Below, in pieces: positions 14,105 through 52,039 of a stretch of 64,000 bases of DNA. Every line of letters begins with the position of its first letter. Position 1 is the stretch's first letter. The stretch is taken from contig AP017968.1 of NCBI GenBank assembly GCA_002356455.1, positions 2,480,001 through 2,544,000 of the forward strand. Reading direction: 5' to 3'. Below the pieces are notes generated by a model that saw only the letters and a list, made by a program, of their open reading frames with translations, was not told the DNA's origin and searched no databases. Source of the DNA: Fusobacterium varium (GTDB lineage: Bacteria; Fusobacteriota; Fusobacteriia; Fusobacteriales; Fusobacteriaceae). The translations under genes and the position numbers were made by a program.

Positions 14105-16240
14105 CTATATTTTTAATTTTAATTGATTTTTCATTTCTTCTATTTCTTTCTCTTTTTGCTTTATTGCTTTTTTTATTCCTAATACTTGTGTTCCATAAAA
14201 ATTTCCCATTTTATTTTTAAGCTCTTTTATTTCTTTAGTTATTGTTTTAGAAACTGTTAATCCATACTCTTCAAGTTCTTCTCTACTCAATGTAATTCTT
14301 TTACTTCTGCATCCATGATGATTAGGTGGAAGATATCTATTCCAAAATGGATGATCTAATGGATAAACTTTTCCATTTAAAATTTGGCATATTTCAGATG
14401 TTCTTTCATCATCTATTGCATCATACAATCCATAAGGTTTGTTTTTCTTATTAAGTTCTTGATTATAGAATGCTCCTGCATTATATGAACTCTGCATATT
14501 ATTTCTATATACCAGCTCTAAATACCATGGACTATCTCCTAATCCAGTTTTATCTAAAATTGTTTTACTAGTCTCTACCCAATCTTTAAATGTACCTCCA
14601 TTACTTAAATTATCTAAAAGATTATTATATAGAGTTCTTGTTGTTTCTAATTCCAAACTTCTTTTAATATAAAAGAATGTTTCATTTACTTTTTTAGTAA
14701 TATCATCTAGATGGTCATACAGAATAGGAAATTTCTTTATAAACCAATTTATCGCTTTGCTAAATGGTAAATTAAAAGGATCTTTCTCATCAGATGAAAA
14801 TTCCATCAATGGATTTTCTAATTCATCTATATAGCCTTTTAAATAAGTTATAATCATTTTTTCTTTTAGTTCACTCAAATCAAATGAGAAACTTTCTAAG
14901 TCATTTATATTTTTTATTTCTTTAAATTTTTCTTTAAGTTGCTTAGTTAAAGTTTCAGTAAAATCTTTTATTCCAGGAGAAATGGTTTCTTCAAATGCTA
15001 AAACTCTTTCTTTATTTTCTTCAAATAGATCATCTAGTTTTTTTTTACTGAACTCTGCTCCTATTCCGTTTGCATATATTTGTTCTGGCTTTTCTATAAG
15101 GAATTCTGGAGAGATTCCTAAATGTTCTGAAATATATTCTGCTGTAACCTTATAACCTGTACTTGATAACTTTTGCAGATTATCTAATTTCACTGTTTTA
15201 AGTTCTTCCTGCTGCTTTTCCCTTGCTATTTTCTCTTCTTCTGTAAATATTTTTTCTAATGTAAATTCAAAATCTTTAGGATTATATCCATGATATTTTG
15301 AATCTATCTCTAGCAGCTGAAACAGTGAATCTGTAACAAATTTACATATTTCTTCTACTACTTCATCAAATCCTTCTTTATGAATTTCTCCTAAACTATA
15401 TGAACCTGTTCCTCCACCATTATCCATTGTTAAAGTAGAACCTAATATATTTTGCACCAGTTTTTCCTTTTCTCTGTTTTCAAGTTCTGTATATATCTTT
15501 GGATCCAAATCTGAGAGTTTTATAAATTGGATAGCTTTATTTAAATCAAACTCTCTACTTGGTGATCTTACTGGAACTGCTATTGAAATCATCCCTTCTG
15601 GCTTTTCAATACTTTTAGCTATCTCATCTCTTTCTGCTTTTGTACTATTTATATCTACAGGATAAACAGGAATAACAGATCCATATTTTTTTGATAAACC
15701 TCTTAATTGATTTTCATATAATTCTTTATTCAGAAATGATTGTTGGCAGCTTTCAAATATACTTTTTCCTGTCGGCATTGCTGGATTCCATTTATGAATA
15801 CTTAATAAAAACTTATCTCTATTAAGCTCCATTTCTTCAGAACCTATTTTTAATTTCCATTTTTTATCTGAGTATGAAATATACTCAAAGGGTATTGGAA
15901 TTAATGCTTCTATGCTAAAGTCTGAGTTATAAATTATTTCAAAACAACTATATCCAAAATATCTAGCAGTTATTAAATGATTTACAATTCTATTAAACTT
16001 TATTCCTGAAAACCTTTCTTGAATTTCCTTTTCTAATTCTAAAGATTCTACTTTTTTACTTATTGGAAGTAATTTTCTCCCTGATACTGCTCTTTCAAGC
16101 TTCTGTAGAGCTGAGGTTATATCTATATCTTTCAAAAGCTTTTTTATAAAATCACTTGTTAAATCACTGCTGTCACTTGGTATTCCTTTAAAAAGCTCAG
16201 TAACTACTGATAACATAAATTCTTTTTTTATTTTTCTCAC
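14105..16240 (-). CDS. Fused portal (DUF935) and Mu F-like head morphogenesis protein
   Basis: A 711-residue protein joining two functions. Residues about 30-430 match the DUF935/Mu gp29 portal. Residues about 580-680 match the Mu F/SPP1 gp7 minicapsid domain, including a segment with D-D-E-R-T-S-E-I-C and P-P-N-H-H-G-C-R-S. Separate genes in Mu, they are one frame here with no stop between. The start is GTG at 16240, overlapping the terminase stop (GTGA); an ATG eight codons later is possible. It would form the dodecameric portal and bring the F domain into the procapsid. Confidence 0.9.
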   Translation of the reverse strand: MRKIKKEFMLSVVTELFKGIPSDSSDLTSDFIKKLLKDIDITSALQKLERAVSGRKLLPISKKVESLELEKEIQERFSGIKFNRIVNHLITARYFGYSCFEIIYNSDFSIEALIPIPFEYISYSDKKWKLKIGSEEMELNRDKFLLSIHKWNPAMPTGKSIFESCQQSFLNKELYENQLRGLSKKYGSVIPVYPVDINSTKAERDEIAKSIEKPEGMISIAVPVRSPSREFDLNKAIQFIKLSDLDPKIYTELENREKEKLVQNILGSTLTMDNGGGTGSYSLGEIHKEGFDEVVEEICKFVTDSLFQLLEIDSKYHGYNPKDFEFTLEKIFTEEEKIAREKQQEELKTVKLDNLQKLSSTGYKVTAEYISEHLGISPEFLIEKPEQIYANGIGAEFSKKKLDDLFEENKERVLAFEETISPGIKDFTETLTKQLKEKFKEIKNINDLESFSFDLSELKEKMIITYLKGYIDELENPLMEFSSDEKDPFNLPFSKAINWFIKKFPILYDHLDDITKKVNETFFYIKRSLELETTRTLYNNLLDNLSNGGTFKDWVETSKTILDKTGLGDSPWYLELVYRNNMQSSYNAGAFYNQELNKKNKPYGLYDAIDDERTSEICQILNGKVYPLDHPFWNRYLPPNHHGCRSKRITLSREELEEYGLTVSKTITKEIKELKNKMGNFYGTQVLGIKKAIKQKEKEIEEMKNQLKLKI

Positions 16241-17547
16241 CCCCTTCTAGTTCCATAAAATGTTTTTAATCTTTTCTTAAGTGGAGTATATTCAAATTCT
16301 TCCAATCCATATCCCATTGCTGCAATACTATGAGCATCTATATTATATTTTCCAGATTTCATACTTCCATCTGAATTTTTTTTATATACACAGCTTTCAA
16401 CTTCTTCTTTTGTATTAGGGCATCTTTTAATATCTATAACTATTCTTGAAAAACTCCTTAGCATTTGTTCATGATAATCAACTGATCCTTTTCCTTTTGT
16501 AGCTCCTGCGATATTATAGCCAGCATCATAAAAATCTGCTATTGTCTGGCTTGAAGCACTATCTGCATATATTGGAATATTTCCCTCTCTTAAAGGTTCT
16601 AACTCATCAAAGAGTTCAAGTGTTAGTTTTCCTTTGTTATAGTATTCCCAATAAATATAAAGTTCATTCAAATATGGATTAACAGCCATTTTCAAACCAC
16701 ATGTATAAGATATAGAAAATCCCCAGTCTATACCTCTATGAAGATTACTATTATCAATTTTTTCTTGTACATATTTTTCAAATACATTTTCTTCAAAGAC
16801 TGCATTGTATAAAACTAATTCTCCATCAGCTCCAAATTTCCCCTCTTTTGCTATTCTTCGTATTCTTGGATCTTTTTCAGATTCAAGTTCATAAATAAAA
16901 TTTACAGGTAGAAAAGGATTGTCTTTATAAGTAGAGTGATGAACTTTTATAATAACTTGTTCTTTTCTCCCATCTTCTAAAACTACTTTTTCAGTTTTAG
17001 TTAAAAACCTTTTTGTATATAACTCTTCTTCATCAAAATTAAAGCCAGCATCTGTAAAGAACATTTTATAGATTGAAGAATTTTTTGATACAGGATTACA
17101 CATAAGAACAAAATGTGATCTTATCCCTTTTACTCTTAATCTTTTTCTTAGTTCTTTAATATCATCTAATGTTAATTCATCAGCTTCCTCAATAACTATA
17201 TAGTCTATATTTTTTATAGATTTTAGTTTTCTATAGTCATCCATACCTTTAAATATAATTCTAGATCTATTCATTACATTTTGAACTTCCAAAGGTGATT
17301 TCATAAATTTCCACTCATCTAAAATATCTAATTGATCAGAAGCATCTAAAATATCCTCATAGCAACTCTCTTTATGAGTAGCAAAAACTTTTCTAATTAC
17401 AAGAACTTTTCTTTTCTCTTTAGAAGAATCAAGAACCATTTTAGAAAATCCAGTAAAACTTTTCCCAGATCCATATCCACCTATCATTAACAAAATATCA
17501 AAATCATCATCTGCAAAAACTTTATAGAAATGTTCAACTATTTGCAT
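16237..17547 (-). CDS. terL: Terminase large subunit
   Basis: A 436-residue DNA-packaging motor. Walker A is G-G-Y-G-S-G-K-S at about 23-30, Walker B is Y-I-V-I-E-E-A-D-E-L at about 115-124, and the nuclease domain starts near G-I-D-W-G at about 271. The sequence is of the PBSX/Terminase_3 type. It overlaps both the small subunit gene and the portal gene, so the packaging genes are translationally coupled. Confidence 0.95.
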   Translation of the reverse strand: MQIVEHFYKVFADDDFDILLMIGGYGSGKSFTGFSKMVLDSSKEKRKVLVIRKVFATHKESCYEDILDASDQLDILDEWKFMKSPLEVQNVMNRSRIIFKGMDDYRKLKSIKNIDYIVIEEADELTLDDIKELRKRLRVKGIRSHFVLMCNPVSKNSSIYKMFFTDAGFNFDEEELYTKRFLTKTEKVVLEDGRKEQVIIKVHHSTYKDNPFLPVNFIYELESEKDPRIRRIAKEGKFGADGELVLYNAVFEENVFEKYVQEKIDNSNLHRGIDWGFSISYTCGLKMAVNPYLNELYIYWEYYNKGKLTLELFDELEPLREGNIPIYADSASSQTIADFYDAGYNIAGATKGKGSVDYHEQMLRSFSRIVIDIKRCPNTKEEVESCVYKKNSDGSMKSGKYNIDAHSIAAMGYGLEEFEYTPLKKRLKTFYGTRRG

Positions 17548-18289
17548 TTGGTTTTATCACCTCTATAGTGATTTTTCTATTCATTTTCTTTTCATAATTA
17601 TCAATAGATTCTTGAGCTTTTTTAGTTTCTAATTCCAATAGCCCCTCTTTAACAGCAACATCTTTCTTCTTTAGTGTCAGCTCACTTTTCTTAATATCAG
17701 ATAACTTCTCTCGAATTCCATCTGCTGCCTTAGCTCCTAGGAAATCACCCCATACCGAAGCCGCTTGAATAGCTGCTCCAAAGCTTTTACTATCTTTAGA
17801 AGCTTCACTCATAATTTTTTCAAGCATTCCCAAAACTTCCCCAGTTCCAAATTTGCTTGTTTCCAGGTATGCTTTTTTCTGCTCTTCAAATACAGATTGT
17901 AGCTTTTTATTTTTTTTTAATTTAGAAGCTGCGTCTCGTGGATGCTTATATCCTGCCTTTTCTGCTGCAAGAGTTGGTTTCTCTCCCTGGAGGCAATAAT
18001 ACAAGAAATCTATCTGCATATCTGATAAACTTTCCAGATTATAAATTCTTGTCAAGTCCTCTTTTGTGATATTTTTTGATACTTTTTCAAGTTCTTCTAA
18101 GGATTCTGTAAATAGCTTATAGTACCTATTCACAATGTTTTTTATAGAGCTCTCTGAGTACTCTTTTAATCTAGATTGAGTTTCCTTTATCCTGTCATCT
18201 TTCTTTTTCCCAAAATTTGAGATCTGGAGAGAATGAAACAATCCTAAGATCTCTATATGTTTTTTGCTAAGTGGAGTTTTCTTTATCAA
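17534..18289 (-). CDS. terS: Terminase small subunit
   Basis: A 251-residue protein. I chose TTG at 18289 because AAGGAGG lies about 7 bases before it; the frame opens slightly earlier at another TTG without such a site. Residues about 75-140 include an H-T-H-type segment (L-A-A-E-K-A-G-Y) typical of Terminase_2 DNA-binding domains, followed by oligomerisation helices and a Lys-rich end. It recognises the packaging site, which by analogy should be close by. Confidence 0.88.
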   Translation of the reverse strand: MIKKTPLSKKHIEILGLFHSLQISNFGKKKDDRIKETQSRLKEYSESSIKNIVNRYYKLFTESLEELEKVSKNITKEDLTRIYNLESLSDMQIDFLYYCLQGEKPTLAAEKAGYKHPRDAASKLKKNKKLQSVFEEQKKAYLETSKFGTGEVLGMLEKIMSEASKDSKSFGAAIQAASVWGDFLGAKAADGIREKLSDIKKSELTLKKKDVAVKEGLLELETKKAQESIDNYEKKMNRKITIEVIKPNANS

Positions 18290-18323
18290 GTTTTTTCCTC
18301 CTTCCTTCAAATTTTTTTTTATA

Positions 18324-18366
18324 GGGAGAAAAGGGAATCGAACCCTTTCTAAGTTCCTACTCTCCC
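18324..18366 (-). other. tRNA-like minihelix (acceptor stem plus T-arm only)
   Basis: Read on the minus strand, a 7-bp acceptor-like stem (GGGAGAG with TTCTCCC, one G-T pair) encloses a perfect 5-bp T-arm (AAGGG/CCCTT) with the canonical loop TTCGATT. Only 12 bases separate the 5' acceptor strand from the T-arm, so the D- and anticodon arms are absent, and there is no CCA. It is either a deleted tRNA or a tRNA mimic in the intergenic region before terS. Confidence 0.6.
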
Positions 18367-18372
18367 ATAAAA

Positions 18373-18393
18373 CCGAGGGGGATAAGTCCTCGG
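18373..18393 (-). terminator. Short GC-rich hairpin before the tRNA-like element
   Basis: CCGAGG (18373-18378) pairs with CCTCGG (18388-18393) around a 9-base loop, and TTTTAT follows on the minus strand. It could weakly terminate transcripts arriving from the upstream late genes, or belong to the packaging region. Confidence 0.5.
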
Positions 18394-18400
18394 TAATAAT

Positions 18401-18680: not shown

Positions 18681-19136
18681 CTATTTACTTCTTTCAAATG
18701 CTTCATTTGCTGCATATAAGAAATCTTCACACATTTTCATTTCTTCTAACAGAATGGGATCTGAGTTTTCTTTATTTTTATCTTTTAATCTATCTAGGTC
18801 TGTGTTTACACCAGTTTCAACATAGCCTACTGTTTCAGCTTCCATAGTTAAAACGATTTTTGGGTAACTAGGTTCACTTTTATCGTCTTCTAGCAAGATA
18901 TAATCTCTTGCATTTATTCTTCTAAGTGTCAATTCATATGGGCTTACAAGATTTCTGGAATCTTTTATAAATATCCAGGGCATAGATTTAGCTTTTCCTA
19001 TTCTTTCCCCAAATACTGGTTGTGCTTGGAATAGAAAAACATTTCTATCTTTCCATTTTTGTCTTGTAACTTTTTTCCCTGCTTTAAGTAACCTCTTTGT
19101 CTGTTCCCAACTCAATAATTTTTCTTTTTTTTCCAT
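18681..19136 (-). CDS. DUF2829/Tad2-like protein, anti-Thoeris candidate
   Basis: A 151-residue protein. Residues about 8-35 fit the start of the DUF2829 family: L-S-W-E-Q-T-K-R-L-L-K-A-G-K-K-V-T-R-x-x-W, then N-V-F-L-F-Q. A later segment ends A-R-D-Y-I-L-L-E, like the family C-terminus (W/Y followed by a terminal strand). Members named Tad2 bind the cyclic ADP-ribose signal of Thoeris defence and so protect the phage. About 45 residues beyond the core are extra. The position at the head of the late operon is unusual for an early-acting inhibitor. Binding residues were not verified. Confidence 0.7.
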   Translation of the reverse strand: MEKKEKLLSWEQTKRLLKAGKKVTRQKWKDRNVFLFQAQPVFGERIGKAKSMPWIFIKDSRNLVSPYELTLRRINARDYILLEDDKSEPSYPKIVLTMEAETVGYVETGVNTDLDRLKDKNKENSDPILLEEMKMCEDFLYAANEAFERSK

Positions 19137-19574: not shown

Positions 19575-19734
19575 GTTTTCCTCCTATTTTCTATTTTTCT
19601 CCAGTGTAGCTATATGTAGTAAGTAACTTTCTAACTTTTTATAAATCACTTTTACAGGACCTGAGCCTAACCCATATACTTTACCGCTAAAAAATCATAT
19701 TCTAGCCTTTTAAATATCTAGGTTTTCACATTTT

Positions 19735-19789
19735 TACCCCCTTGAAAAATGTGCTTTTTTTGAAATTCAAATTTCATTTTTTGGGGGTA
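19735..19789. repeat. Large inverted repeat between late genes and the Rep-like gene
   Basis: TACCCCC (19735-19741) pairs with GGGGGTA (19783-19789), and inside it AAAAATG pairs with CATTTTT, giving a two-part stem of about 14 bp. The loop itself holds GAAATT-CAAATTTC, a near palindrome. The rest of the 268-base spacer (19575-19842) shows no convincing gene. Confidence 0.6.
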
Positions 19790-19810
19790 GTTTCAAAAAA
19801 TACCCTGTAA

Positions 19811-19840
19811 AAAACAAAAACAGGATTTAAAATCCTGTTG
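19811..19840 (-). terminator. Intrinsic terminator of the Rep-like operon
   Basis: CAGGATTT and AAATCCTG (19821-19837) form the stem, with T-rich sequence following on the minus strand, a few bases beyond the stop of the Rep-like gene. Confidence 0.8.
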
Positions 19841-19842
19841 TC

Positions 19843-20937
19843 TTATAAACTATCTATTTTAGGCACTTCTTGTATAAATTCTATATTTGTTTTTATGCTT
19901 GTTATATTAAATAATAATTTCTCTAATCTATAAAAATTATTAAAGAATTTTATCTTTGTACTGCCATTTTTTTCTGTATCTTCCAGGCTCTCCCTAGCCC
20001 AACTGATATAGTTATATTTCATTCTGTCTGTAACCCCTACATCAGAATTTTTTATAATATTCTTTATCATTTCAAAGTCCAAAATTAAGGATTGCATATC
20101 CTTTATTTCTGCCCTTAAAGGCGGTTTGGACTTCTTTAATACTGTAATTAGTCTTTTTTTAAGTTCTTTGTTTTTCTTTTCTAGTACAAGATTTAATCTA
20201 TCCCACAAGTTTTTTTCTAGGTATTTTGAATATTTTTCTTTTAGGATCCGCATTGTAAATTTATCTAAATTTAATGTTGTTTCTCCCAGAACCTTTGGAG
20301 TGAATACCTGCTCCACTCTTATAATAGTTTTTCTACCTGGTATATAACTTTTCTTATTGGATTGAGCCATCTTGTTATAAATATTAATCTTATAGTCCGA
20401 CTTATTGTATGTAAACCCCGTGGTATAGTCTTTGGTATTTCCTTTTTGCTCTATTTGGATATATTTTTTAGATTTTTTATTTTCTGGACCCATGCTTTCC
20501 ACAAAGGTTTCATATACAATTCCAAAAATTAAAAAGTAATCTTCAAATATGTCCTCGAACTGCTGTGCAACATCTATTCGAATATACTTTAGATGGTGCA
20601 TTTTCAAGGTATCATCTGCCGAAAATTCCTTTACAAGTCTTAAAAGTTCTGCATTAACTTCCATTCTTTGCTTTTCTGTAGTTATAAGACTTATGTTATC
20701 TTCATAGAAGAATTTTGGGTAACTAAAATCTATATAAATAAAAGTTTCCTGGTAATCAAAACCTTTAGATTTCAGTTTAATGTTATTTATCCAGTGTCCT
20801 TTTAGCTTTAACGTGGCTTTTCGGTCATTGTTGCTTACTTCTGTTTCTCCATATCCTCTAAATTTTTTATCTAGGATAATTGATATAGTTTTTAGGTCTG
20901 TAGCTGCTACAGTCATTATATTGCAAGTATCTATCAT
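19843..20937 (-). CDS. Replication-initiator-like protein (Rep_trans/phage gene II type)
   Basis: A 364-residue protein. Landmarks are I-R-I-D-V-A near residue 123, then K-I-N-I-Y-N-K-M near 185 and I-I-R-V-E-Q-V-F near 205. These resemble the order seen in rolling-circle initiators of the Rep_trans/RstA group, where the third region precedes the catalytic tyrosine area. It follows a 77-residue gene by 9 bases and lies beside a dyad-rich spacer (21214-21352) that could be its origin. A second, DnaD-like initiator exists at 28.5 kb, so this gene may come from another replicon. The call is tentative. Confidence 0.5.
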   Translation of the reverse strand: MIDTCNIMTVAATDLKTISIILDKKFRGYGETEVSNNDRKATLKLKGHWINNIKLKSKGFDYQETFIYIDFSYPKFFYEDNISLITTEKQRMEVNAELLRLVKEFSADDTLKMHHLKYIRIDVAQQFEDIFEDYFLIFGIVYETFVESMGPENKKSKKYIQIEQKGNTKDYTTGFTYNKSDYKINIYNKMAQSNKKSYIPGRKTIIRVEQVFTPKVLGETTLNLDKFTMRILKEKYSKYLEKNLWDRLNLVLEKKNKELKKRLITVLKKSKPPLRAEIKDMQSLILDFEMIKNIIKNSDVGVTDRMKYNYISWARESLEDTEKNGSTKIKFFNNFYRLEKLLFNITSIKTNIEFIQEVPKIDSL

Positions 20938-41998: not shown

Positions 41999-44900
41999 TT
42001 AGAACTTATAGTTAAATTTAACTGCATATTTTATACTTGTATCCTTTTTATGGCTTTCATCTGCTGCTGACACTTCAAATGTCACACCCATATGGTTTGC
42101 TTTTTCTACTGTAAGTCCTATTGTTCCTACTACTTTTCCTTCTCTTTCTTCTGGTTTGATTAAACTATAATATCCTTCATCTCCATTTTTAAGCCTTGCC
42201 TTATTTCTGTCATAATTTTCTCCAAGCTCATACAGATATTTTGCATCTGCTGTTGCTTTTACAGATATATCATTTCCTGCATAGATTCTTTGTGATGCTT
42301 TTACTCCTGCTCCTACCTGTGCACTGAAATAGTCATTATCCTTAATCTGTACTTCAAGTCCACCTTTGCTTCCAGCGCTCTCTTTAAAGTCATCTATTTT
42401 TCCATACTCAAGATCTAGGATTCCATATACATCTAATTCTCTTGATAAATCTGTATAAAGTGTTTTTATAAGTCTGTTGTCCAAACTTACAGAGTAAGTA
42501 TTATACTCTCCCTTATTTTCATATGTTTCCTGAAGATTAAGTTTTCTCTTAGCTATATGTCTGTTGTATCCTAAATCCAGTCTAGTCAGCCAAGAAAGTT
42601 TGTTTTCATCGCTTAATCTCTTAACTCTGTGTACTCCAACTCTTAATGAGTATACATCCTCTTTTGAACCGCCATCATCAAAGTCAAACTTCGATCCGGC
42701 AAATCCTAATGTATATCCATATTTAGTTCCATATTCTGCCCCTTCTTTTTCTTTCATATACAAAAGTCCCATTACCTTGTAATCATAGTCATCTATTCCT
42801 AAAGTATTATCCTTGTATTTTCCATCAGTATAGATAACACTGTATTTACTGCTGTCTTTAGTCAGATTGTATGATGATTCAAGTTCATAGAAAGAGTTAG
42901 TAAATGCCTGGTTGATATCCTGCATTCTTCCCTGAATAGTGGCATAAATATCCCCTCTGAATTCTGCCAGTTTTTTTGAAGTTTCACTTTCAAACTGATC
43001 TGCTGGCAGTCCATCTAAATATTCATTCAACCCTTTTAATATATCTGCATCTTTACCATAACCACCGCTGTTCTTTAATATATTATCCAGCCCTTTGTCC
43101 ATAGCATCAAACTGTTCTCCTATTGTTAAATCAGCATATGGTCTTTTAGCTATTACCAGACTTCCTGTATTTGTAACTTTTGCAACAAATAAAGGTGATG
43201 TAACAGGAGTAAGTTTAGTTCCTGTTATTGTTCCCATTGCTGTATTTACAAAGCCATCTATCTCATAAGAGATACCATTTCCTGTTGATGCAAAATTAGA
43301 CAGCAGTCTTACTTCTCCGCTCACACTATGCGCATTAAATAGCGGTGTTCCAGTTGTTACATCTACATATGCTCCATCCACTATTATTGCTCCAGCTGTT
43401 GTAAGTGTTCCTCCAATTGAAGTATAGTTTCCATTGATTTTAATAGTACCATCTGGTTTGATTTCTACAGCTCCTACTTGTGCTGTTGCAAGTCCTGTTG
43501 CTCCTACAGCAGTTCCAGTACCTGTTACAACTATATTTCCTGTATTTACAACTCCTCCTGGTCCTTCAATACCTATTCCATTATTTACAAATATTGTTCC
43601 TGTATTTGTAAATGTTGATCCTACTCCTATAAGCATTCCAACACCTTCATTGACAGTTATTGTTCCAGCATTTTCTATTCTTGCTCCTGAATAAGCTGCC
43701 ATACCTACTGTTGTTGCTCCACATGTAGCAAGAGTTCCTCCAAGATTAATGTTAGCTCCTGCTGCATTGACAGCTACTGCTCCATCTCTTACAAGTATTC
43801 CCACTGCTCCATTATCTATATTTATTGTTCCAGTATTTGTAAATCTAGTTCCTGTTCCTTCTCCATATACTCCTACTGAGTGATCATGATTTACTGTTAT
43901 TGTTCCAGAACTTGTTGCTGTTGTTCCTCCCAGCAAATACATTCCTATAGAATTTAAATGCTCATCAGCTTTATTGTGATTTAATGATGGCCCTAAGTCA
44001 GTAGCTCCTACAATTATATTTCCAGTATTTGTTACTGTATTTGCTCCATTTGAATAGATTCCTACTGATGATGTTCCCAGTGTCATATCAGCATTGTTGA
44101 TAACTGCAGCAGAATTAGAAGTCATAGTTGATGAAACTATATCTCCAGCTGCATTTCTAGTAATTATAGCCTGCTGCAGGTAAATTCCATATCCACTATC
44201 ACCAATATTCCAATTTCCAGATGATGTTGTTATTATTCCATTACCAAGGATTTTGTAGATTCCTACTGATGCTGCAGAAACTTTATTATCTATTGTCATG
44301 GCTCCTGTATATGTCACATTTCCATCACCTTCACTCACAATACCTATACTTGTATTAGCGCCAATACCCATGTTTCCTGTTACTATTGAGTCCATTCCTT
44401 TAGCATATACTCCTATTGCATTGTCTGTTCCCACTATGATGTTTGACATATCAGCAGTTATTGTTCCTCCAGTTCCTTCACCATAGATTCCAAGACCATC
44501 TTTTCCAACAGTCATTGTTTGAGTTCCAGTTCCCTGTTTAATTACACTTCCAGCTGTCATTCCCTTTCCAAAGACACCTATACTGTAATCTCCTGCTGTA
44601 ATATTTCCAGTTCCTACATATGAGCCTCCATTTAAAGAAACTCCTATTGATGATGTTGACTTATTTACACATGATGAAGAATCTCCAACTGTTACATTTC
44701 CATTTATTGTAACTATACTGTCTTCTCCATATACACCAATATTGTTATCTCCTCCGCTTATAGACACAGTACCTGCTACAGTTAAATTAGAATTTCCTTT
44801 TGCCATTATTCCTACCTGGTTATTTTCAGTAGAACTTCCAATAGAAATTCCTCCAGCTGTAGTTCCTGTTGAATTGTTTAATACCATACCAATAGTATAG

Positions 44901-47900
44901 CTTCCTGTCTGAGTTATTACTGGAGCAGTTCCAAGTGCTGCCACTCCATCATAGTAAACTCCCATAGAATATTTAGATGATGTTCCTGCCTGTACTGCTA
45001 TTGTTGTTGTTCCAAATGCTGGAGCAGCTCCTTTTACATATGCTCCTATTCCACCATTTTGAACTGTTATAGTTGATGCTCCTATAGCATTAATAGTTCC
45101 ACCATCAGCTACTATTCCTATTTGATCATTAGCTGTGATATTTCCACTAAAATTCAATGCAGCATTGTTAGAATACATATATATTCCCTCTGTCCCAACT
45201 GTAATATTAGCTGTATTTGAAACTGTTACTGTTGTTCCTGCTCCTTGTGCATATACTCCTATACCATTAGCTCCTGTTGATATTGTGGCTGTTCCTGCAA
45301 GAGTCATATTAGCTCCATTTTCAGCTACTATTCCTATTGCACTCTTAGATGAACTTCCATTACCTGTTGTTATTGTTCCATCTATTGTTGAAGCTGCAGT
45401 TCCTGTTACAAATACTCCTACACTTTCATTCCCTAAAGCAATTGTTCCCACGTTAACAGTTCCTGCTACTCCCTCAAGAACTACCCCTGTATTTCTTGAA
45501 CCTGTTGAAGCTATATTATTTGCAGTAAGTCCATTTGTTGCTCCTTTAATATATACACCTATTCCCTCTGTTCCTGTCATAGTCATATTATTATTTTGTA
45601 CAGAAGTAAGTATTCCATTATTAGCTGAGTATATTCCTATTCCTTTGCTTCCTACATTAATATTTCCTGTATTTACCACATCTGCAATATCTGTGTAGAT
45701 TCCTATTGATGGTGTATTTGCAGTTGATACACCAGATGCATTGATAGTTCCAGTATTATTTATTGTTACTGGGAATGTAGGATTAGTTGCTCCTTTCACT
45801 GCTGCAAGGCCTATTCCTCCTGATGCAGCTGTTATTGTTCCAGCATTATTTACACTGTGCGCTGCAGTAAGACCAGCATCATATAACCCCATAAGTCCTG
45901 TTGCGCCTTCTCCTATACTTAGGTTTCCAGAAGAACTTAGACTTCCATTTGTTGTAGCTGCCAGTGAACCTGATCCTGTTACATTTATATTTGCTCCAAG
46001 ATTCATTGTACCGCCATTATTGAAAACTCCTATTCCTCCTCCAGACAGGAAGTTAAATGTCAGACTTCCACCTGTTCCAAGATTAGCAGTTCCTCCAGCT
46101 ACATACACTCCTGTACCGCCATTTATATTAAGTACACTTGTACCTGTTGTAAGAGTAGTTCCATTGTCTACATAGATACCTATTCCTCCAACTGTATTTA
46201 CAGTTCCACTATGAGTAAGATTTATTCCTGGTGCAGTTCCATCTAAATAGATTCCTACTCCATTTTGAGCGCTTACAGTTACATTGCTCATTGTATATGT
46301 CCCTACTGCGCTGTTTAAAAGAATTCCTATTGAACTATTTACAGAATTTGTACCTGTTGTTATATTAGCCCCAGTGAATGAAACGCTATTGTCAAGAACA
46401 TAAACTCCAACAGAATCCTGTCCTGTTGCTATATTTCCAGAAATTACTGAAGTTCCCTTAGCTGCAACTCCAACAGCTCCAGTTCCAGCAACATTTACTG
46501 CAAAATCAATATCTGCATTTTCACCAAATACTCCAACTCCTCCTGAAGCTATATTTAAAGTTCCTGCTGTTACTTTATTTGCTCCAGTATTTTTAAGGTA
46601 TATTCCAACTGCATTTGAATTAATAGTTCCTCCAGTTCCATTGAAACTGTTTGCAGCACCATCTATATATACCCCTGTTCCAGTAGTAGTTGTTATTGTT
46701 CCAGCATTTGTACCAGAGCTTATTCCAGCTCCTCCTATATACATTCCAAGATTAGCACCTGCTGATATAGTTCCACCAGCAGCATTTTCTGCAGCAGCAG
46801 TTTTTCCTGCTTTAGCTTCAGCAACCATACCTACAACTGATTTAGTTGGCACACTTGGTGTTCCATTCATCAGGATAGTTCCTGAGTTGATTCCCTTACC
46901 TTCTTCTGCATATATTCCTATACTGTCATTGTCATTCATTGTAATAGTTCCTGTTGAAGTCAGCTGAGAACCTCCTCCCACATATGAAGCTATACTGTCA
47001 CTTTGTCCAAGTGTTGATGTTATGTTGGCATTGTTTACTAAAGTTATTCCATCAGCGGCATATATTCCTATACTTTCACTTCCAATAAGAGAAACAGCTG
47101 AACTATTTGTTACAGTACCTGATGCAGTTCCCTTACTGTAGTAAACTCCTATATTTTTAGTTCCAGCTGCTGTGTTATTTACAGTTATTATTCCGCCACC
47201 TGCAGAGGCACCATCAGTAAGATACATTCCTGTTCCTCTTCCTGTATCTGTATTAAGGGCAAGACCACCTGCATCTATAGTTACAATTCCGCCACTTCCA
47301 TATACTCCGACTGCTCCTGCTGAAGAAGTTCCTTTTGCAGTCACAGTTCCAGATATAGTTGATGCTCCATCTATGAATACTCCTGTTGTTTTATCTCCAG
47401 TTGCTGTAACATTAACATTTAAAGTATTATTTCCTTTAGAGTAAATCCCCACTGCTTCCTTTATAACAGCAAGCTGTCCTGCAGTTCCATTAAATATACT
47501 TGCAGTACCAGCATTTTCAAGATAGATTCCTACTGTTTTATTTCCAGGAGTTACTGCTGCTGCCACCCCATCTACAGTTACTATTTTACCTAAATCTATT
47601 CCTACAGTGGCCCCTTTACCATAAACATAAATATTCTTATTTTCATTTGTACTTGAAAGAGTAAGACTATCTTTGAAATCAACAGATGAATTTTCTGCAA
47701 AAACTCCCACACTTGATTTACCATTGAATACTATAGTGTTTCCAATATCAAGTTCAGTTACAGCGCCAGATTTAACATATATTCCTGTAGTACCATCTAC
47801 ATTTAGATTAATTGTTCCTTTGTTTATTGCTTTAACATTAGTTCCTTCTGCATACATACCTATCTGTGTAGAATCATTGACATCAATTACTCCTGTTCCA

Positions 47901-50900
47901 GTATCATTAAGAATATTAGCAGTTTTCGTATACATTCCAACAGCACCTGTTTTACCAGTTCCTAAAGTTATAGTTCCTTTATTAGTACCAGTATTAGCAG
48001 TACTTCCTTTAACATATATTCCAATTCCAGAAGTTCCAATATTTAAAGCTCCTGATGAAATAATACTGATATCTTCAGCATATACAGCAGTTCCTTTATC
48101 TAAAGCAGAAGCATTTACAGTTGTATTGATATTTCTAGTTCCTGTTCCACTTCCTTTAAAGAAGATTACTGTTTTTCCAAGAGTTCCAGTATTATTTGAA
48201 GTTACAGTAACAGCAGTTGCTGTAAGATCTGATGTTTCATCAAGCATAACTCCAATAGCATCTGCTCCAAGGTCAAGAGTTCCAAGATTTGTAACTTTAG
48301 TTCCATTTTTAGCATAGATGGCAACTCCGCCATCACCTACAGATACTTTTCCCTGATTAGAAATAGTAGCTTTATCACCATAGATACCAATAGCAGCATT
48401 AGCTCCACTGGAATGTCCAACTTTTATTTCTCCAGCTGCTGTATTTGTTACAGTAACATCAGCTTCTGTTCCTGAAGCATTGTTGTTATATGCATAAATA
48501 CCTACAGCTCCTGTACCATCAAGAGTTATTTTATTAGTGTTAGTAATATCAGCTTTTCCCTGAGCAGTAAAAATACCTACAGTTCCAAATTCATCTACAA
48601 TAGGTGTTCCCACAGGCTGTTCTCTATATGCCATTCCTAAAATACCTATAGATTGATTTCCACCAACTTTTATATCTCCAGCATTCAATACTGTACTTCC
48701 ATTTACTGCATAAACTCCTACAGCTTTATCATTTACAGTATTTCCTCCACCAGTTACTTTTTCTACTTCTACTTCTGCTCCAACAGCTATATCTATTTTA
48801 CCAAAGTTTATGTAAAGACCAATAGCACCATTTCCTGAATCTGTTCTGTCTGCTATTACTTTAGAATTAGTTAGTAAATTAATTTGAGCATCTGTTGCAC
48901 TTGCTGCTGAAACACTTGAATTCATTTCAAGTCCTACCACTTGGTTATTAAAATATGTTGTGGCATAAGCTGTATCTGTTGAACTTGTCACTGTAATGCC
49001 AGTATCAACTGTCAAATCAAGTCTTTGCCCCAAAAATCTTCTTGAATAAAAATATCCTGTAGTAGTATCATTTTGACTATATTTATCCATATTGGCATCA
49101 ATAGTTAAATCTCCGCCATCTACAGTAGCTATTTTATATTTATCAAATGTAATCAATCCAGAAGTTCCATCTACAATTGTTACTCCTGCTCCTAAATTTG
49201 TTTCAACTGTAGCCTTTAAACTGTTAGAAAGAAGACCAGTAGCATTTTTTAAATTTGCCACTGTAGCATCATTTGACATCATTGTGATTGTTGTCCCATT
49301 TAATGTTACTTTAGGAGCAAGCAAATCAAGTTCTACTCCTGTTGCTTTTCCTGAAAGTTCTAGGCTGGCATTAGTCAGATTGATTGTTCCATTCCCATCG
49401 GAATATGCTGCATATCCCTCTCCAGAATATTTCAGTTCTGAACCTATAAGGCTGATGTTTGTTCCTGCACCAAAGGCTGCTACACCTGCTGCTCCTTCTT
49501 TTACTTCTATCTTAGCAGCTCCAAGAGTAACTGTTGCTGCTCCCTCTGCATATATAGCTAATCCTTTTGTTGCCGGATTTGATGTATCATCAATTGAAAT
49601 AGTTAAGGTATTTCCAGAAGTTGATGTTGTTGTTCCTCCATCACTGTATATTCCTGTTGTTCCACCTGTTCCTTTTAAAGCAACTGTTCCACTTATATTT
49701 ACAGTATTACTATTATATATTCCAGAAGATGATTCTCCAGTTACTTCTATATTACTTCCATTAGAAATAGCAAATGTTCCTGTATTATATATTCCTGATT
49801 TATTATTTCCTGTTCCAAGAACCTTTACAGTTCCGTTATTACTTCCAACTCCATTACTTACAGTTGCTAACCCTATATTTTTATTATTATTTCCAGTTAT
49901 TTCTATTGTTCCAGAGTTAGTAATTGAAGCTCCAGAACCATTAGCTATCAAACCTGTAAATTCATTTAAATTACTTTGCAATATTGCAGTATTTTTAATA
50001 GTTCCTGTTCCTGAAGCTTGAGCAAAACTATTTCCTGTAAGACCTGAAGTTACAGTTATATTTTTATTTAACTGAACTGCATTTTGATCACTTCTTACTA
50101 AAGTACTCTTTTTAGCATTAGCTCCAAAATTTAAACTATTTATAGTTGTATTATTTAAAACCATATCATTAGTATTAGTAGCTGTAGTAACATTTCTGAA
50201 AAAACCTACATTTTCTTCTCCATTTACTAAAATATTCAATCCTGTCACTCTGCTTATAGGATCTCCACTTGAAGTACCTTGTGCTATTGCTATTCCTATA
50301 TTCTTTTTTCCAGCCACTGTTATTGTTCCATTTGAACCTGTAATATTAGTAGAGTCATAATAAAAATTATTGCTGCTAAAATAATTTTTCATTCTAAAAC
50401 CATAGTTATCTTCTCCATTTATTGTTATATTTCCTAAAGATACTATAGAATTTGGTCTAGCAGAATAATAATATCCATAGTCTATTCCTATACTCTGTTT
50501 ACCATTTATAATAATATTCCCACTATTTTTTGTTTGTGGCTGTGTTGTAAATGCACTTCCAGCTATAGCAGATTCATTATACTCTGTATCAATCATTATA
50601 CCAACCATATTATAACCACTATTAAGTATTATTGTACCAGTGTTTTCAAGAATAGATGTTGAAGATGTTGAAAATTCTCCTCCACCTCCACCTCCTCTTA
50701 ATAGCTGGTGTTCAAATCCTACTAAACTCTTGGCAGAAGATGGATTATTATGACCATTTAATGTCAAAGTTCCTGCAAAAGTATATGTTCTATTTATAGT
50801 TGTTCCGCCTCTTCCTACTTCATAAGGGTTCAAGCTTAAAAACATTATAGTTCCATTTCCGCCATCATCTCTTGTCATATTATAGCTTCCATTAATTACT

Positions 50901-52039
50901 GCATCATGATTTAAAACATCACTTATGAATGCATTTAAATTTGATCCTGTATTTGAAGGAGTCAATGTACTTCCTCCAGCAACTGTCATAGTTGCTCCAG
51001 ACCATGAAGTTCCTCCAGTTCCACTTGTTATATTTAAAGTTGCTCCTCCAGTATCATATGAAGCATAATTTTGTGCAATTATATTTGAACGGGGCATAGA
51101 TACTGTTGTAGGCTGCCCAAACCCTGTACCATTAAAAGTCAAATTTAATGGTACTAAAACTGAAATTGCAGGTGTTGCAGGTGTTGCAGGCTTATTAGGA
51201 ACTGGAATTACTGAAGGTGTATAACCATCTGGTGCTATTGGTGCAGCAACTGTTATTGTTTTATCAATTGGTACAATTGGTGTTGTTATTGTTGGTGCTG
51301 TTACTGTTATTTTTTCTACTGCACTAGGTGTCGTTACTGTTACTGATACACCTGCTGGAGCTGTTGGAGTTACTACAACAGGAGCTGTTATTGTGGGGAT
51401 TCCAACTATTGTTGGTGTTACTGTTCCCGGAAGTGCTCCTAAATTAACTGTAGGTGCTGATACTGTCACTGATATATTTGGATTTACTACTGGTAAATCT
51501 GGCTGTATCGGTTTTATATTTGCTCCTACTTCAATTTCTTCTCTGAATACTTCATTATCTACTGCTACTCCATTTCCTTCAAGTATTTTGTCAACACCAA
51601 TATTGCCACTTGATTTAAGCAGACTTCTTCCACTCTTTGTTCCATAATGCTTGTTTATTGCATCAATTGTTTCTGAAAATTCGCTTATAGTTTTATTTTT
51701 CATAGTTCCATTATCTAAATGCTGATATGAAAAAAATACTTGTGTACTATTGAATGTTGGCTTAGAGTAAAAATCTCCCTTTCTTACAAGTTCCACAAAA
51801 TCTGAGTTGTATTCTTTTATCAATCTTTCATTTTCTTCTATTTTTCTTCTTATTTCTTCGCGCTCTGTCTGAATTCTAGTTAAAAGATCGCTTTTAGTTT
51901 CCTGTATTTCCTCTGCTGTTATTCCTGCACCTAAAGATATTCCTCCTGTTATCATGAAGGCTATCAAAAGCGAAAGAGAATAACTGACTTTTCTCTTCAA
52001 AAATCTCTTTAGAGATTTTTCAATGTCATTTTTTCTCAT
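41999..52039 (-). CDS. Giant type V autotransporter adhesin (fusobacterial)
   Basis: A 3346-residue protein. A long fusobacterial-type signal peptide (about 1-38) is followed by a helical autotransporter-associated N-terminal region (to about 95), a Thr/Pro/Val-rich stretch (about 175-310) and some 2700 residues of Gly/Asn/Thr-rich passenger with endless I-G-V/I-Y-x-x-G turns, a beta-solenoid pattern. The last 280 residues are an autotransporter barrel ending Phe-Asn-Tyr-Lys-Phe. Size, start and neighbours resemble RadD and related fusobacterial adhesins. It appears less AT-rich than its surroundings. Confidence 0.93.
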   Translation of the reverse strand: MRKNDIEKSLKRFLKRKVSYSLSLLIAFMITGGISLGAGITAEEIQETKSDLLTRIQTEREEIRRKIEENERLIKEYNSDFVELVRKGDFYSKPTFNSTQVFFSYQHLDNGTMKNKTISEFSETIDAINKHYGTKSGRSLLKSSGNIGVDKILEGNGVAVDNEVFREEIEVGANIKPIQPDLPVVNPNISVTVSAPTVNLGALPGTVTPTIVGIPTITAPVVVTPTAPAGVSVTVTTPSAVEKITVTAPTITTPIVPIDKTITVAAPIAPDGYTPSVIPVPNKPATPATPAISVLVPLNLTFNGTGFGQPTTVSMPRSNIIAQNYASYDTGGATLNITSGTGGTSWSGATMTVAGGSTLTPSNTGSNLNAFISDVLNHDAVINGSYNMTRDDGGNGTIMFLSLNPYEVGRGGTTINRTYTFAGTLTLNGHNNPSSAKSLVGFEHQLLRGGGGGGEFSTSSTSILENTGTIILNSGYNMVGIMIDTEYNESAIAGSAFTTQPQTKNSGNIIINGKQSIGIDYGYYYSARPNSIVSLGNITINGEDNYGFRMKNYFSSNNFYYDSTNITGSNGTITVAGKKNIGIAIAQGTSSGDPISRVTGLNILVNGEENVGFFRNVTTATNTNDMVLNNTTINSLNFGANAKKSTLVRSDQNAVQLNKNITVTSGLTGNSFAQASGTGTIKNTAILQSNLNEFTGLIANGSGASITNSGTIEITGNNNKNIGLATVSNGVGSNNGTVKVLGTGNNKSGIYNTGTFAISNGSNIEVTGESSSGIYNSNTVNISGTVALKGTGGTTGIYSDGGTTTSTSGNTLTISIDDTSNPATKGLAIYAEGAATVTLGAAKIEVKEGAAGVAAFGAGTNISLIGSELKYSGEGYAAYSDGNGTINLTNASLELSGKATGVELDLLAPKVTLNGTTITMMSNDATVANLKNATGLLSNSLKATVETNLGAGVTIVDGTSGLITFDKYKIATVDGGDLTIDANMDKYSQNDTTTGYFYSRRFLGQRLDLTVDTGITVTSSTDTAYATTYFNNQVVGLEMNSSVSAASATDAQINLLTNSKVIADRTDSGNGAIGLYINFGKIDIAVGAEVEVEKVTGGGNTVNDKAVGVYAVNGSTVLNAGDIKVGGNQSIGILGMAYREQPVGTPIVDEFGTVGIFTAQGKADITNTNKITLDGTGAVGIYAYNNNASGTEADVTVTNTAAGEIKVGHSSGANAAIGIYGDKATISNQGKVSVGDGGVAIYAKNGTKVTNLGTLDLGADAIGVMLDETSDLTATAVTVTSNNTGTLGKTVIFFKGSGTGTRNINTTVNASALDKGTAVYAEDISIISSGALNIGTSGIGIYVKGSTANTGTNKGTITLGTGKTGAVGMYTKTANILNDTGTGVIDVNDSTQIGMYAEGTNVKAINKGTINLNVDGTTGIYVKSGAVTELDIGNTIVFNGKSSVGVFAENSSVDFKDSLTLSSTNENKNIYVYGKGATVGIDLGKIVTVDGVAAAVTPGNKTVGIYLENAGTASIFNGTAGQLAVIKEAVGIYSKGNNTLNVNVTATGDKTTGVFIDGASTISGTVTAKGTSSAGAVGVYGSGGIVTIDAGGLALNTDTGRGTGMYLTDGASAGGGIITVNNTAAGTKNIGVYYSKGTASGTVTNSSAVSLIGSESIGIYAADGITLVNNANITSTLGQSDSIASYVGGGSQLTSTGTITMNDNDSIGIYAEEGKGINSGTILMNGTPSVPTKSVVGMVAEAKAGKTAAAENAAGGTISAGANLGMYIGGAGISSGTNAGTITTTTGTGVYIDGAANSFNGTGGTINSNAVGIYLKNTGANKVTAGTLNIASGGVGVFGENADIDFAVNVAGTGAVGVAAKGTSVISGNIATGQDSVGVYVLDNSVSFTGANITTGTNSVNSSIGILLNSAVGTYTMSNVTVSAQNGVGIYLDGTAPGINLTHSGTVNTVGGIGIYVDNGTTLTTGTSVLNINGGTGVYVAGGTANLGTGGSLTFNFLSGGGIGVFNNGGTMNLGANINVTGSGSLAATTNGSLSSSGNLSIGEGATGLMGLYDAGLTAAHSVNNAGTITAASGGIGLAAVKGATNPTFPVTINNTGTINASGVSTANTPSIGIYTDIADVVNTGNINVGSKGIGIYSANNGILTSVQNNNMTMTGTEGIGVYIKGATNGLTANNIASTGSRNTGVVLEGVAGTVNVGTIALGNESVGVFVTGTAASTIDGTITTGNGSSSKSAIGIVAENGANMTLAGTATISTGANGIGVYAQGAGTTVTVSNTANITVGTEGIYMYSNNAALNFSGNITANDQIGIVADGGTINAIGASTITVQNGGIGAYVKGAAPAFGTTTIAVQAGTSSKYSMGVYYDGVAALGTAPVITQTGSYTIGMVLNNSTGTTAGGISIGSSTENNQVGIMAKGNSNLTVAGTVSISGGDNNIGVYGEDSIVTINGNVTVGDSSSCVNKSTSSIGVSLNGGSYVGTGNITAGDYSIGVFGKGMTAGSVIKQGTGTQTMTVGKDGLGIYGEGTGGTITADMSNIIVGTDNAIGVYAKGMDSIVTGNMGIGANTSIGIVSEGDGNVTYTGAMTIDNKVSAASVGIYKILGNGIITTSSGNWNIGDSGYGIYLQQAIITRNAAGDIVSSTMTSNSAAVINNADMTLGTSSVGIYSNGANTVTNTGNIIVGATDLGPSLNHNKADEHLNSIGMYLLGGTTATSSGTITVNHDHSVGVYGEGTGTRFTNTGTINIDNGAVGILVRDGAVAVNAAGANINLGGTLATCGATTVGMAAYSGARIENAGTITVNEGVGMLIGVGSTFTNTGTIFVNNGIGIEGPGGVVNTGNIVVTGTGTAVGATGLATAQVGAVEIKPDGTIKINGNYTSIGGTLTTAGAIIVDGAYVDVTTGTPLFNAHSVSGEVRLLSNFASTGNGISYEIDGFVNTAMGTITGTKLTPVTSPLFVAKVTNTGSLVIAKRPYADLTIGEQFDAMDKGLDNILKNSGGYGKDADILKGLNEYLDGLPADQFESETSKKLAEFRGDIYATIQGRMQDINQAFTNSFYELESSYNLTKDSSKYSVIYTDGKYKDNTLGIDDYDYKVMGLLYMKEKEGAEYGTKYGYTLGFAGSKFDFDDGGSKEDVYSLRVGVHRVKRLSDENKLSWLTRLDLGYNRHIAKRKLNLQETYENKGEYNTYSVSLDNRLIKTLYTDLSRELDVYGILDLEYGKIDDFKESAGSKGGLEVQIKDNDYFSAQVGAGVKASQRIYAGNDISVKATADAKYLYELGENYDRNKARLKNGDEGYYSLIKPEEREGKVVGTIGLTVEKANHMGVTFEVSAADESHKKDTSIKYAVKFNYKF

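What the first reader, a model, noticed from the sequence alone, without database searches (positions are those of the whole stretch)
18681..19136. Tad2-like (DUF2829) candidate anti-Thoeris protein at the head of a late operon
Seen: the N-terminal K-A-G-K-K-V-T-R-x-x-W pattern and terminal A-R-D-Y-I-L-L-E of DUF2829. Known: Tad2 proteins sequester Thoeris signalling nucleotides. Odd: it is longer than usual Tad2 by roughly 45 residues and sits in the late rather than early region.
Basis: partly seen in the sequence, partly recalled or inferred. Interest (0 to 1): 0.55.

Follow-up and report, generated by a model that had tools for sequence, protein, structure and literature searches.

The report
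Divergent Tad2-like phage protein with tail
A prophage carries a small protein whose first half has the fold of known phage proteins that soak up bacterial alarm molecules, but its binding loops are changed and it has an extra helical tail, so which alarm molecule it might catch, if any, is open.

Summary
The ORF is on the minus strand (151 aa). Residues 12-80 match PF11195 Tad2-like above its cut-off (29 vs 25 bits, E 1.6e-6). A model built with Tad2 homologues overlays solved Tad2 (Z 10.8, 2.2 A, 74 residues), but a control with only the 3 close sequences gave no confident fold (pLDDT 40.8). The extra length is a C-terminal extension (84-151), predicted as a helical hairpin, under purifying selection, seen only in two related prophages. 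The late-region position is not odd: 10 of 25 other Tad2-like genes lie within 3 kb of TerL. Anti-Thoeris function is not supported: no TIR hit in the host with two models, though it has a CBASS cyclase and 4TM effector. Only 10 of 29 residues invariant in three solved relatives are kept; the GWNGK loop and W..S..D.LA.DW segment are replaced. Best reading: an accessory, fast-evolving, probably counter-defence protein of the Tad2 fold with an altered pocket and unknown ligand. A Tad1/Acb2-type hairpin was tested and found no sequence support.

The parts
18681..19136 (-). Tad2-like (PF11195) protein, 151 aa, with C-terminal extension
18888..19115 (-). Tad2-like domain, residues about 8-83
   Evidence: coordinates derived from residue numbers
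18684..18887 (-). C-terminal extension, residues 84-151, predicted low-confidence linker and two helices (100-121, 127-150); found elsewhere only in L004 and L005
19149..19574 (-). 141-aa ORF 12 nt upstream, probably co-transcribed; no confident family; only 46% aa identity to its counterpart in L004
18443..18598 (-). 51-aa ORF downstream, no confident family
19819..19839 (-). terminator-like hairpin after the Rep-like gene, upstream limit of the small gene cassette
18372..18394 (-). stem-loop ACCGAGG..CCTCGGT then TTTTAT, stem invariant and loop variable in 3 prophages; possible weak terminator (the scan did not call it, only 4 T)
18324..18366 (-). conserved hairpin with a tRNA T-arm-like end just before TerS; not called by ARAGORN or Rfam
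17534..18310 (-). probable terminase small subunit
   Evidence: phrog_51, 1.4e-5
16237..17547 (-). terminase large subunit
14105..16240 (-). Mu-like portal fused to Mu F-like head protein
19843..20937 (-). conserved phage protein phrog_36664, Rep-like by my reading only

Best explanation
The gene makes an accessory prophage protein with a Tad2-fold domain (residues about 8-83) and a C-terminal helical hairpin (about 100-150). Shown: PF11195 membership, selection on both halves, restriction to a few related prophages, a place among fast-diverging small genes between a Rep-like gene and the terminase genes. Inferred: like solved Tad2 it assembles into a multimer whose subunit interfaces hold a nucleotide, and it holds down a nucleotide alarm signal made by a host defence while the head and packaging genes are expressed. 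The pocket-lining segments differ from those of Tad2 that bind gcADPR, His-ADPR or cyclic dinucleotides, so the ligand is probably not the same; the hairpin is most likely an added oligomerisation or stabilising part.
For: PF11195 above cut-off; profile and fold match to solved Tad2 only; dN/dS 0.08-0.14 in the domain for the two pairs with the window and 0.19-0.26 in the extension; divergence peak: Tad2-like gene 86.8% DNA identity against Rep 94.5% and TerL 98.8% in L005, and the 141-aa gene 59.3% in L004; recurrent place near TerL; the host carries a nucleotide-signalling defence, CBASS cyclase 3.9e-128 and 4TM effector 1.9e-51.
Against: No ligand or activity was tested. Only 10 of 29 residues invariant in three solved relatives are kept; loop GWNGK is KWKDR and W..S..D.LA.DW is Y..T..R.NA.DY, so the pocket could be lost rather than changed. 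The fold model depends on Tad2 homologues in the alignment. The L004 copy has a stop at codon 2, so the gene is dispensable. No TIR found in the host. Structural or regulatory roles are not excluded.
Confidence: 0.5

Rival explanations
1. A true anti-Thoeris Tad2 that sequesters gcADPR or His-ADPR, made late because Thoeris is triggered by the capsid protein.
For: Same domain and fold; Thoeris cyclases sense major capsid proteins (PMC12578639, passages read), which fits expression near the head genes; ThsB_TIR occurs in 6 of 61 genomes of the family.
Against: Pocket-lining segments replaced; no TIR hit in this host.
Confidence: 0.15
2. An anti-CRISPR of the AcrIIA7 type, which shares the DUF2829 domain.
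For: AcrIIA7 carries DUF2829 (PMC6739104, passages read) and is in the profile hits.
Against: No Cas9 in the host genome; 2 of 12 genomes of the genus have it. Solved AcrIIA7-named proteins bind cyclic nucleotides (titles).
Confidence: 0.05
3. A domesticated Tad2-fold protein that lost ligand binding and serves phage assembly or packaging near the terminase genes.
For: Tad2-like genes often lie near TerL or next to a capsid gene; pocket residues replaced; a weaker structural match to a phage neck protein, 8qkh, Z 5.5, 74 residues.
Against: A copy with a stop at codon 2 exists in an otherwise similar prophage; the gene diverges faster than its flanks in one of two comparisons.
Confidence: 0.2

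Closest known systems
SPO1 Tad2 (Gp34.65; PDB 8smf, 8wje)
   Same: Fold over residues 7-83 (Z 10.8, 2.2 A, 24% identity); residues L17, K18, G20, V23, R25, W28, F34, K58, A76, D78 kept.
   Different: Pocket-lining loop and helix segments replaced; C-terminal extension of 68 aa absent from SPO1 Tad2.
AcrIIA7 / HgmTad2 (8kbi-8kbk) and SptTad2 (8wjd)
   Same: Same domain; some members are also longer than 90 aa.
   Different: The AcrIIA7 aligned carries a long insert between strands where this one has a short loop; their extra length is an insert or N-terminal, not C-terminal.
PF11195 copies in other genomes of the phylum (L006-L011)
   Same: Also lack most of the canonical signature: L008 keeps 9 and L011 10 of 29.
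   Different: 69-80 aa, no extension.
Tad1 / Acb2 hairpin (PF24729)
   Same: Predicted hairpin overlays Tad1 helices (7uav_B Z 7.6, 47 residues).
   Different: No sequence or profile relation found; unrelated hairpins score as well.

Membership tests
PF11195 Tad2-like domain | HMM score above the curated cut-off | tested here: met
   29 bits vs 25, E 1.6e-6, profile 5-71 of 73
PF11195 Tad2-like domain | Tad2 fold | tested here: met
   Z 10.8 to 8smf_H, 74 residues; caveat: without Tad2 homologues in the alignment no confident model
Tad2 anti-Thoeris sponge | Sequence signature of solved, ligand-binding members in the pocket-lining segments (GWNGK; W..S..D.LA.DW) | tested here: not met
   10 of 29 invariant positions kept; KWKDR and Y..T..R.NA.DY instead
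Tad2 anti-Thoeris sponge | Binding of a Thoeris signal or inhibition of Thoeris | not testable with these tools
   needs biochemistry or phage assay
Tad2 anti-Thoeris sponge | Homotetramer with two shared pockets | not testable with these tools
   single chains only
AcrIIA7 | Inhibition of type II CRISPR-Cas | not testable with these tools
   Cas9 absent from the host, present in 2 of 12 genus genomes
Acb2/Tad1 hairpin PF24729 | HMM or profile match of the C-terminal extension | tested here: not met
   0 Pfam families at E 10, no own-genome match at E 10, hhalign 0.6% over 6 columns against 60 hairpins
Acb2/Tad1 hairpin PF24729 | Two-helix hairpin fold like Tad1 | tested here: inconclusive
   Z 7.6, 7.1, 7.0 to Tad1 chains, but FemA 8.0 and a designed hairpin 7.6

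The most novel reading that the evidence does not exclude
A two-module nucleotide sponge: a Tad2-fold domain with a rebuilt pocket for a signal that known Tad2 does not take (perhaps a CBASS product), fused to a Tad1/Acb2-type helical hairpin that adds a second binding site or locks the oligomer, expressed with the packaging genes.
Probability: 0.07. Interest if true: 0.7.

Novelty: new variant of a known kind. Interest (0 to 1): 0.35.

Why it matters
Tad2-like domains are found in many phages, yet the solved members share one pocket signature. A branch with the fold but other pocket residues, kept by selection, would show either that the fold serves signals not yet listed or that it has other jobs. 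The recurrent place near the terminase genes bears on when these proteins are made, since Thoeris senses capsid protein.

Tried and rejected
Acb2/Tad1 hairpin: proposed from the fold list, tested by Pfam, a PDB profile, whole genomes and hhalign; no sequence support, left only as the novel case. PHROGs on the extension gave one chance-level hit in L005, phrog_645 E 0.094. Wider relatives of the extension: none in phages, only the two known prophages in IMG/VR. Closer relatives of the whole protein: 1 other of 61 family genomes, at E 0.002 inside a 1092-aa frame, taken as chance; in phages only distant Tad2-like or chance hits at E 0.1 or worse; one chance hit in plasmids; no close DNA relative in phages; first genome-contig scan empty; the second gave two distant loci at 29-30%. 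L012 (G053) matched only profile positions 38-73 in a 253-aa protein. tRNA and Rfam scans of the window: nothing. The CBASS genes have no near match in plasmids. Two papers on Tad2 that I looked up by DOI are not held, so pocket positions rest on the description in PMC12043709 (passages read) and on my assignment of sequence segments to its strands and loops.

One search counts 25 of 47 contigs of 20 kb or more: 20 without a phrog_2 TerL hit were dropped, L004 and L005 set aside; L074 and L085 are near copies; the loci were found with a GWNGKGM-type query and are biased to it; the null places genes uniformly.

Full report
What is there. The named stretch is an open reading frame on the minus strand, 151 aa, with AGGAGG before its ATG. 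Residues 12-80 match PF11195 Tad2-like above the curated cut-off and residues 11-86 phrog_1048. By single-sequence search the solved Tad2 proteins are the best but weak hits (8wjd, E 0.023).

Relatives. In 61 genomes of the bacterial family only the window's own genome has a convincing copy (one more hit at E 0.002 inside a 1092-aa frame is taken as chance). IMG/VR gives two: L004 (83%) and L005 (86%). Both lie in the same prophage type with the same neighbours. The L004 copy has a stop at codon 2. dN/dS between window and L005 is 0.143 for the domain and 0.189 for the extension; window against L004 0.081 and 0.258; L005 against L004 0.078 and 0.393. So both halves are, or until recently were, under purifying selection.

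Structure. With 36 aligned sequences (3 close, 33 Tad2-like domains from IMG/VR) the model has good confidence in residues 1-40 and 51-80, and two helices at 100-121 and 127-150 at lower confidence. Foldseek's 24 hits below 1e-3 in the PDB are all Tad2 or AcrIIA7 chains; the second look gives Z 10.8, 2.2 A over 74 residues to SPO1 Tad2. The viral library gives mostly proteins named Thoeris anti-defense 2-like. A control with only the three close sequences gave mean pLDDT 40.8 and no Tad2 fold to speak of, though the two helices came back. The fold claim therefore rests on homology found by HMM plus a model that borrows from Tad2 sequences.

Pocket. The review PMC12043709 (passages read) places the gcADPR pocket between loop b1-b2, loop b3-b4 and strand b4 of one chain and loop b1-b2, loop b4-a3 and helix a3 of another. 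In the solved proteins these segments read GWNGK and W..S..D.LA.DW; here they read KWKDR and Y..T..R.NA.DY. Of 29 positions identical in SPO1 Tad2, ModTad2 and an AcrIIA7, the window protein keeps 10; two short PF11195 proteins from other genomes of the phylum keep 9 and 10, so such divergence is not unique to this protein. Which segment is which loop is my assignment from the alignment; no coordinates were available.

Extension. The excess length is all C-terminal. Of 70 unique IMG/VR Tad2-like proteins in the sample, 30 have an N-terminal extension of 40 aa or more and only 2 a C-terminal one (5 of 80 loci were set aside as cut or misread, 5 more were duplicates). No relative of the extension was found outside the two prophages. 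The hairpin overlays Tad1 helices (Z 7.6, 7.1, 7.0), but FemA scores 8.0 and a designed hairpin 7.6. A direct test against the Acb2/Tad1 hairpin family failed: no Pfam match, no own-genome match at E 10, hhalign 0.6% against 60 hairpin sequences. The query profile has only three near-identical rows, so a distant relation could be missed.

Neighbourhood. The order of transcription is: 88-aa gene, Rep-like gene, terminator-like hairpin, conserved 268-nt gap, 141-aa gene, Tad2-like gene, 51-aa ORF, two stem-loops, TerS, TerL, portal with MuF. The small genes between Rep and TerS tend to diverge more than their flanks: for L005 the Tad2-like gene is 86.8% identical against 94.5% for Rep and 98.8% for TerL; for L004 the 141-aa gene is 59.3% against 89.3% and 91.5%. 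Against L004 the Tad2-like gene itself, 86.8%, is only slightly below its flanks, and against L005 the 141-aa gene, 94.4%, is level with Rep. Tad2-like genes one or a few genes before TerS, or next to a capsid gene, also occur in Alcaligenes phage QDWS595, IMG/VR L016, Latilactobacillus phage TMW 1.2272 P1 and Klebsiella phage KPPK108.1; Escherichia phages Huey and N4 and Vibrio phage SD2 have theirs elsewhere. Of 25 IMG/VR contigs with a TerL hit, 10 have the Tad2-like gene within 3 kb (4.4 expected, P 0.008) and 7 upstream on the same strand within 3 kb (1.8 expected without regard to strand, P 0.0016). The late place is thus common, and would suit a defence that senses capsid protein (PMC12578639, passages read).

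Host defences. No ThsB_TIR or TIR_2 in the host genome; ThsB_TIR in 6 of 61 genomes of the family. The host's 89.6-kb contig carries a CD-NTase (3.9e-128) beside a 4TM effector (1.9e-51), a CBASS by these models, next to AbiL-like genes. SMODS is found in 4 of 61 family genomes, this one included. Cas9 is absent from the host and present in 2 of 12 genus genomes. This makes a cyclic nucleotide a live candidate ligand, but a prophage need not act on the defences of the cell it sits in.

Print. Searches for Tad2 with Thoeris or DUF2829, with gcADPR or SPO1, for DUF2829 alone, for Tad2 with sponge terms, with fusion and Fusobacterium, and for Thoeris anti-defense with Fusobacterium listed no paper whose title or abstract start concerns this protein; the last found none at all. 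Most subscription papers are not held.

Verdict. A genuine PF11195 protein, correctly spotted; the anti-Thoeris label goes beyond the evidence; the late position is ordinary; the changed pocket and private C-terminal hairpin are what is unusual.

Noticed in passing
window 18324-18394, minus strand: Two stem-loops before TerS, the second with a tRNA T-arm-like end (AAGGG TTCGATT CCCTT closed by GGGAGAG/TTCTCCC); nearly identical in L004 and L005, z-scores -1.8 to -3.2, one copy in the host genome, no other IMG/VR contig. Could be a leader or a packaging site.
   Followed up: partly
L004 6001-6006: Tad2-like gene with a stop at codon 2 in an otherwise similar prophage.
   Followed up: yes
L111 5887-9814 (own genome contig 2): CBASS cyclase with 4TM effector beside AbiLi/AbiLii-like genes on an 89.6-kb contig.
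   Followed up: partly
G053 contig 3 (L012, L098, L103-L106): Five ThsB_TIR matches in one genome (four within 9 kb, one about 6 kb from L012), and a 253-aa protein in L012 that ends in a stretch matching only the last half of the Tad2-like profile.
   Followed up: no
L061 (Tad2-like ORF, 291 aa) and L077: Other Tad2-like proteins with C-terminal extensions (177 and 68 aa), unrelated at sight to this one.
   Followed up: no
window 19575-19842: 268-nt non-coding gap conserved at 89-93% between prophages although the next gene is replaced or strongly diverged in L004.
   Followed up: partly
window 41999-52039, minus strand: 3346-aa ORF, longest in the window, not analysed.
   Followed up: no
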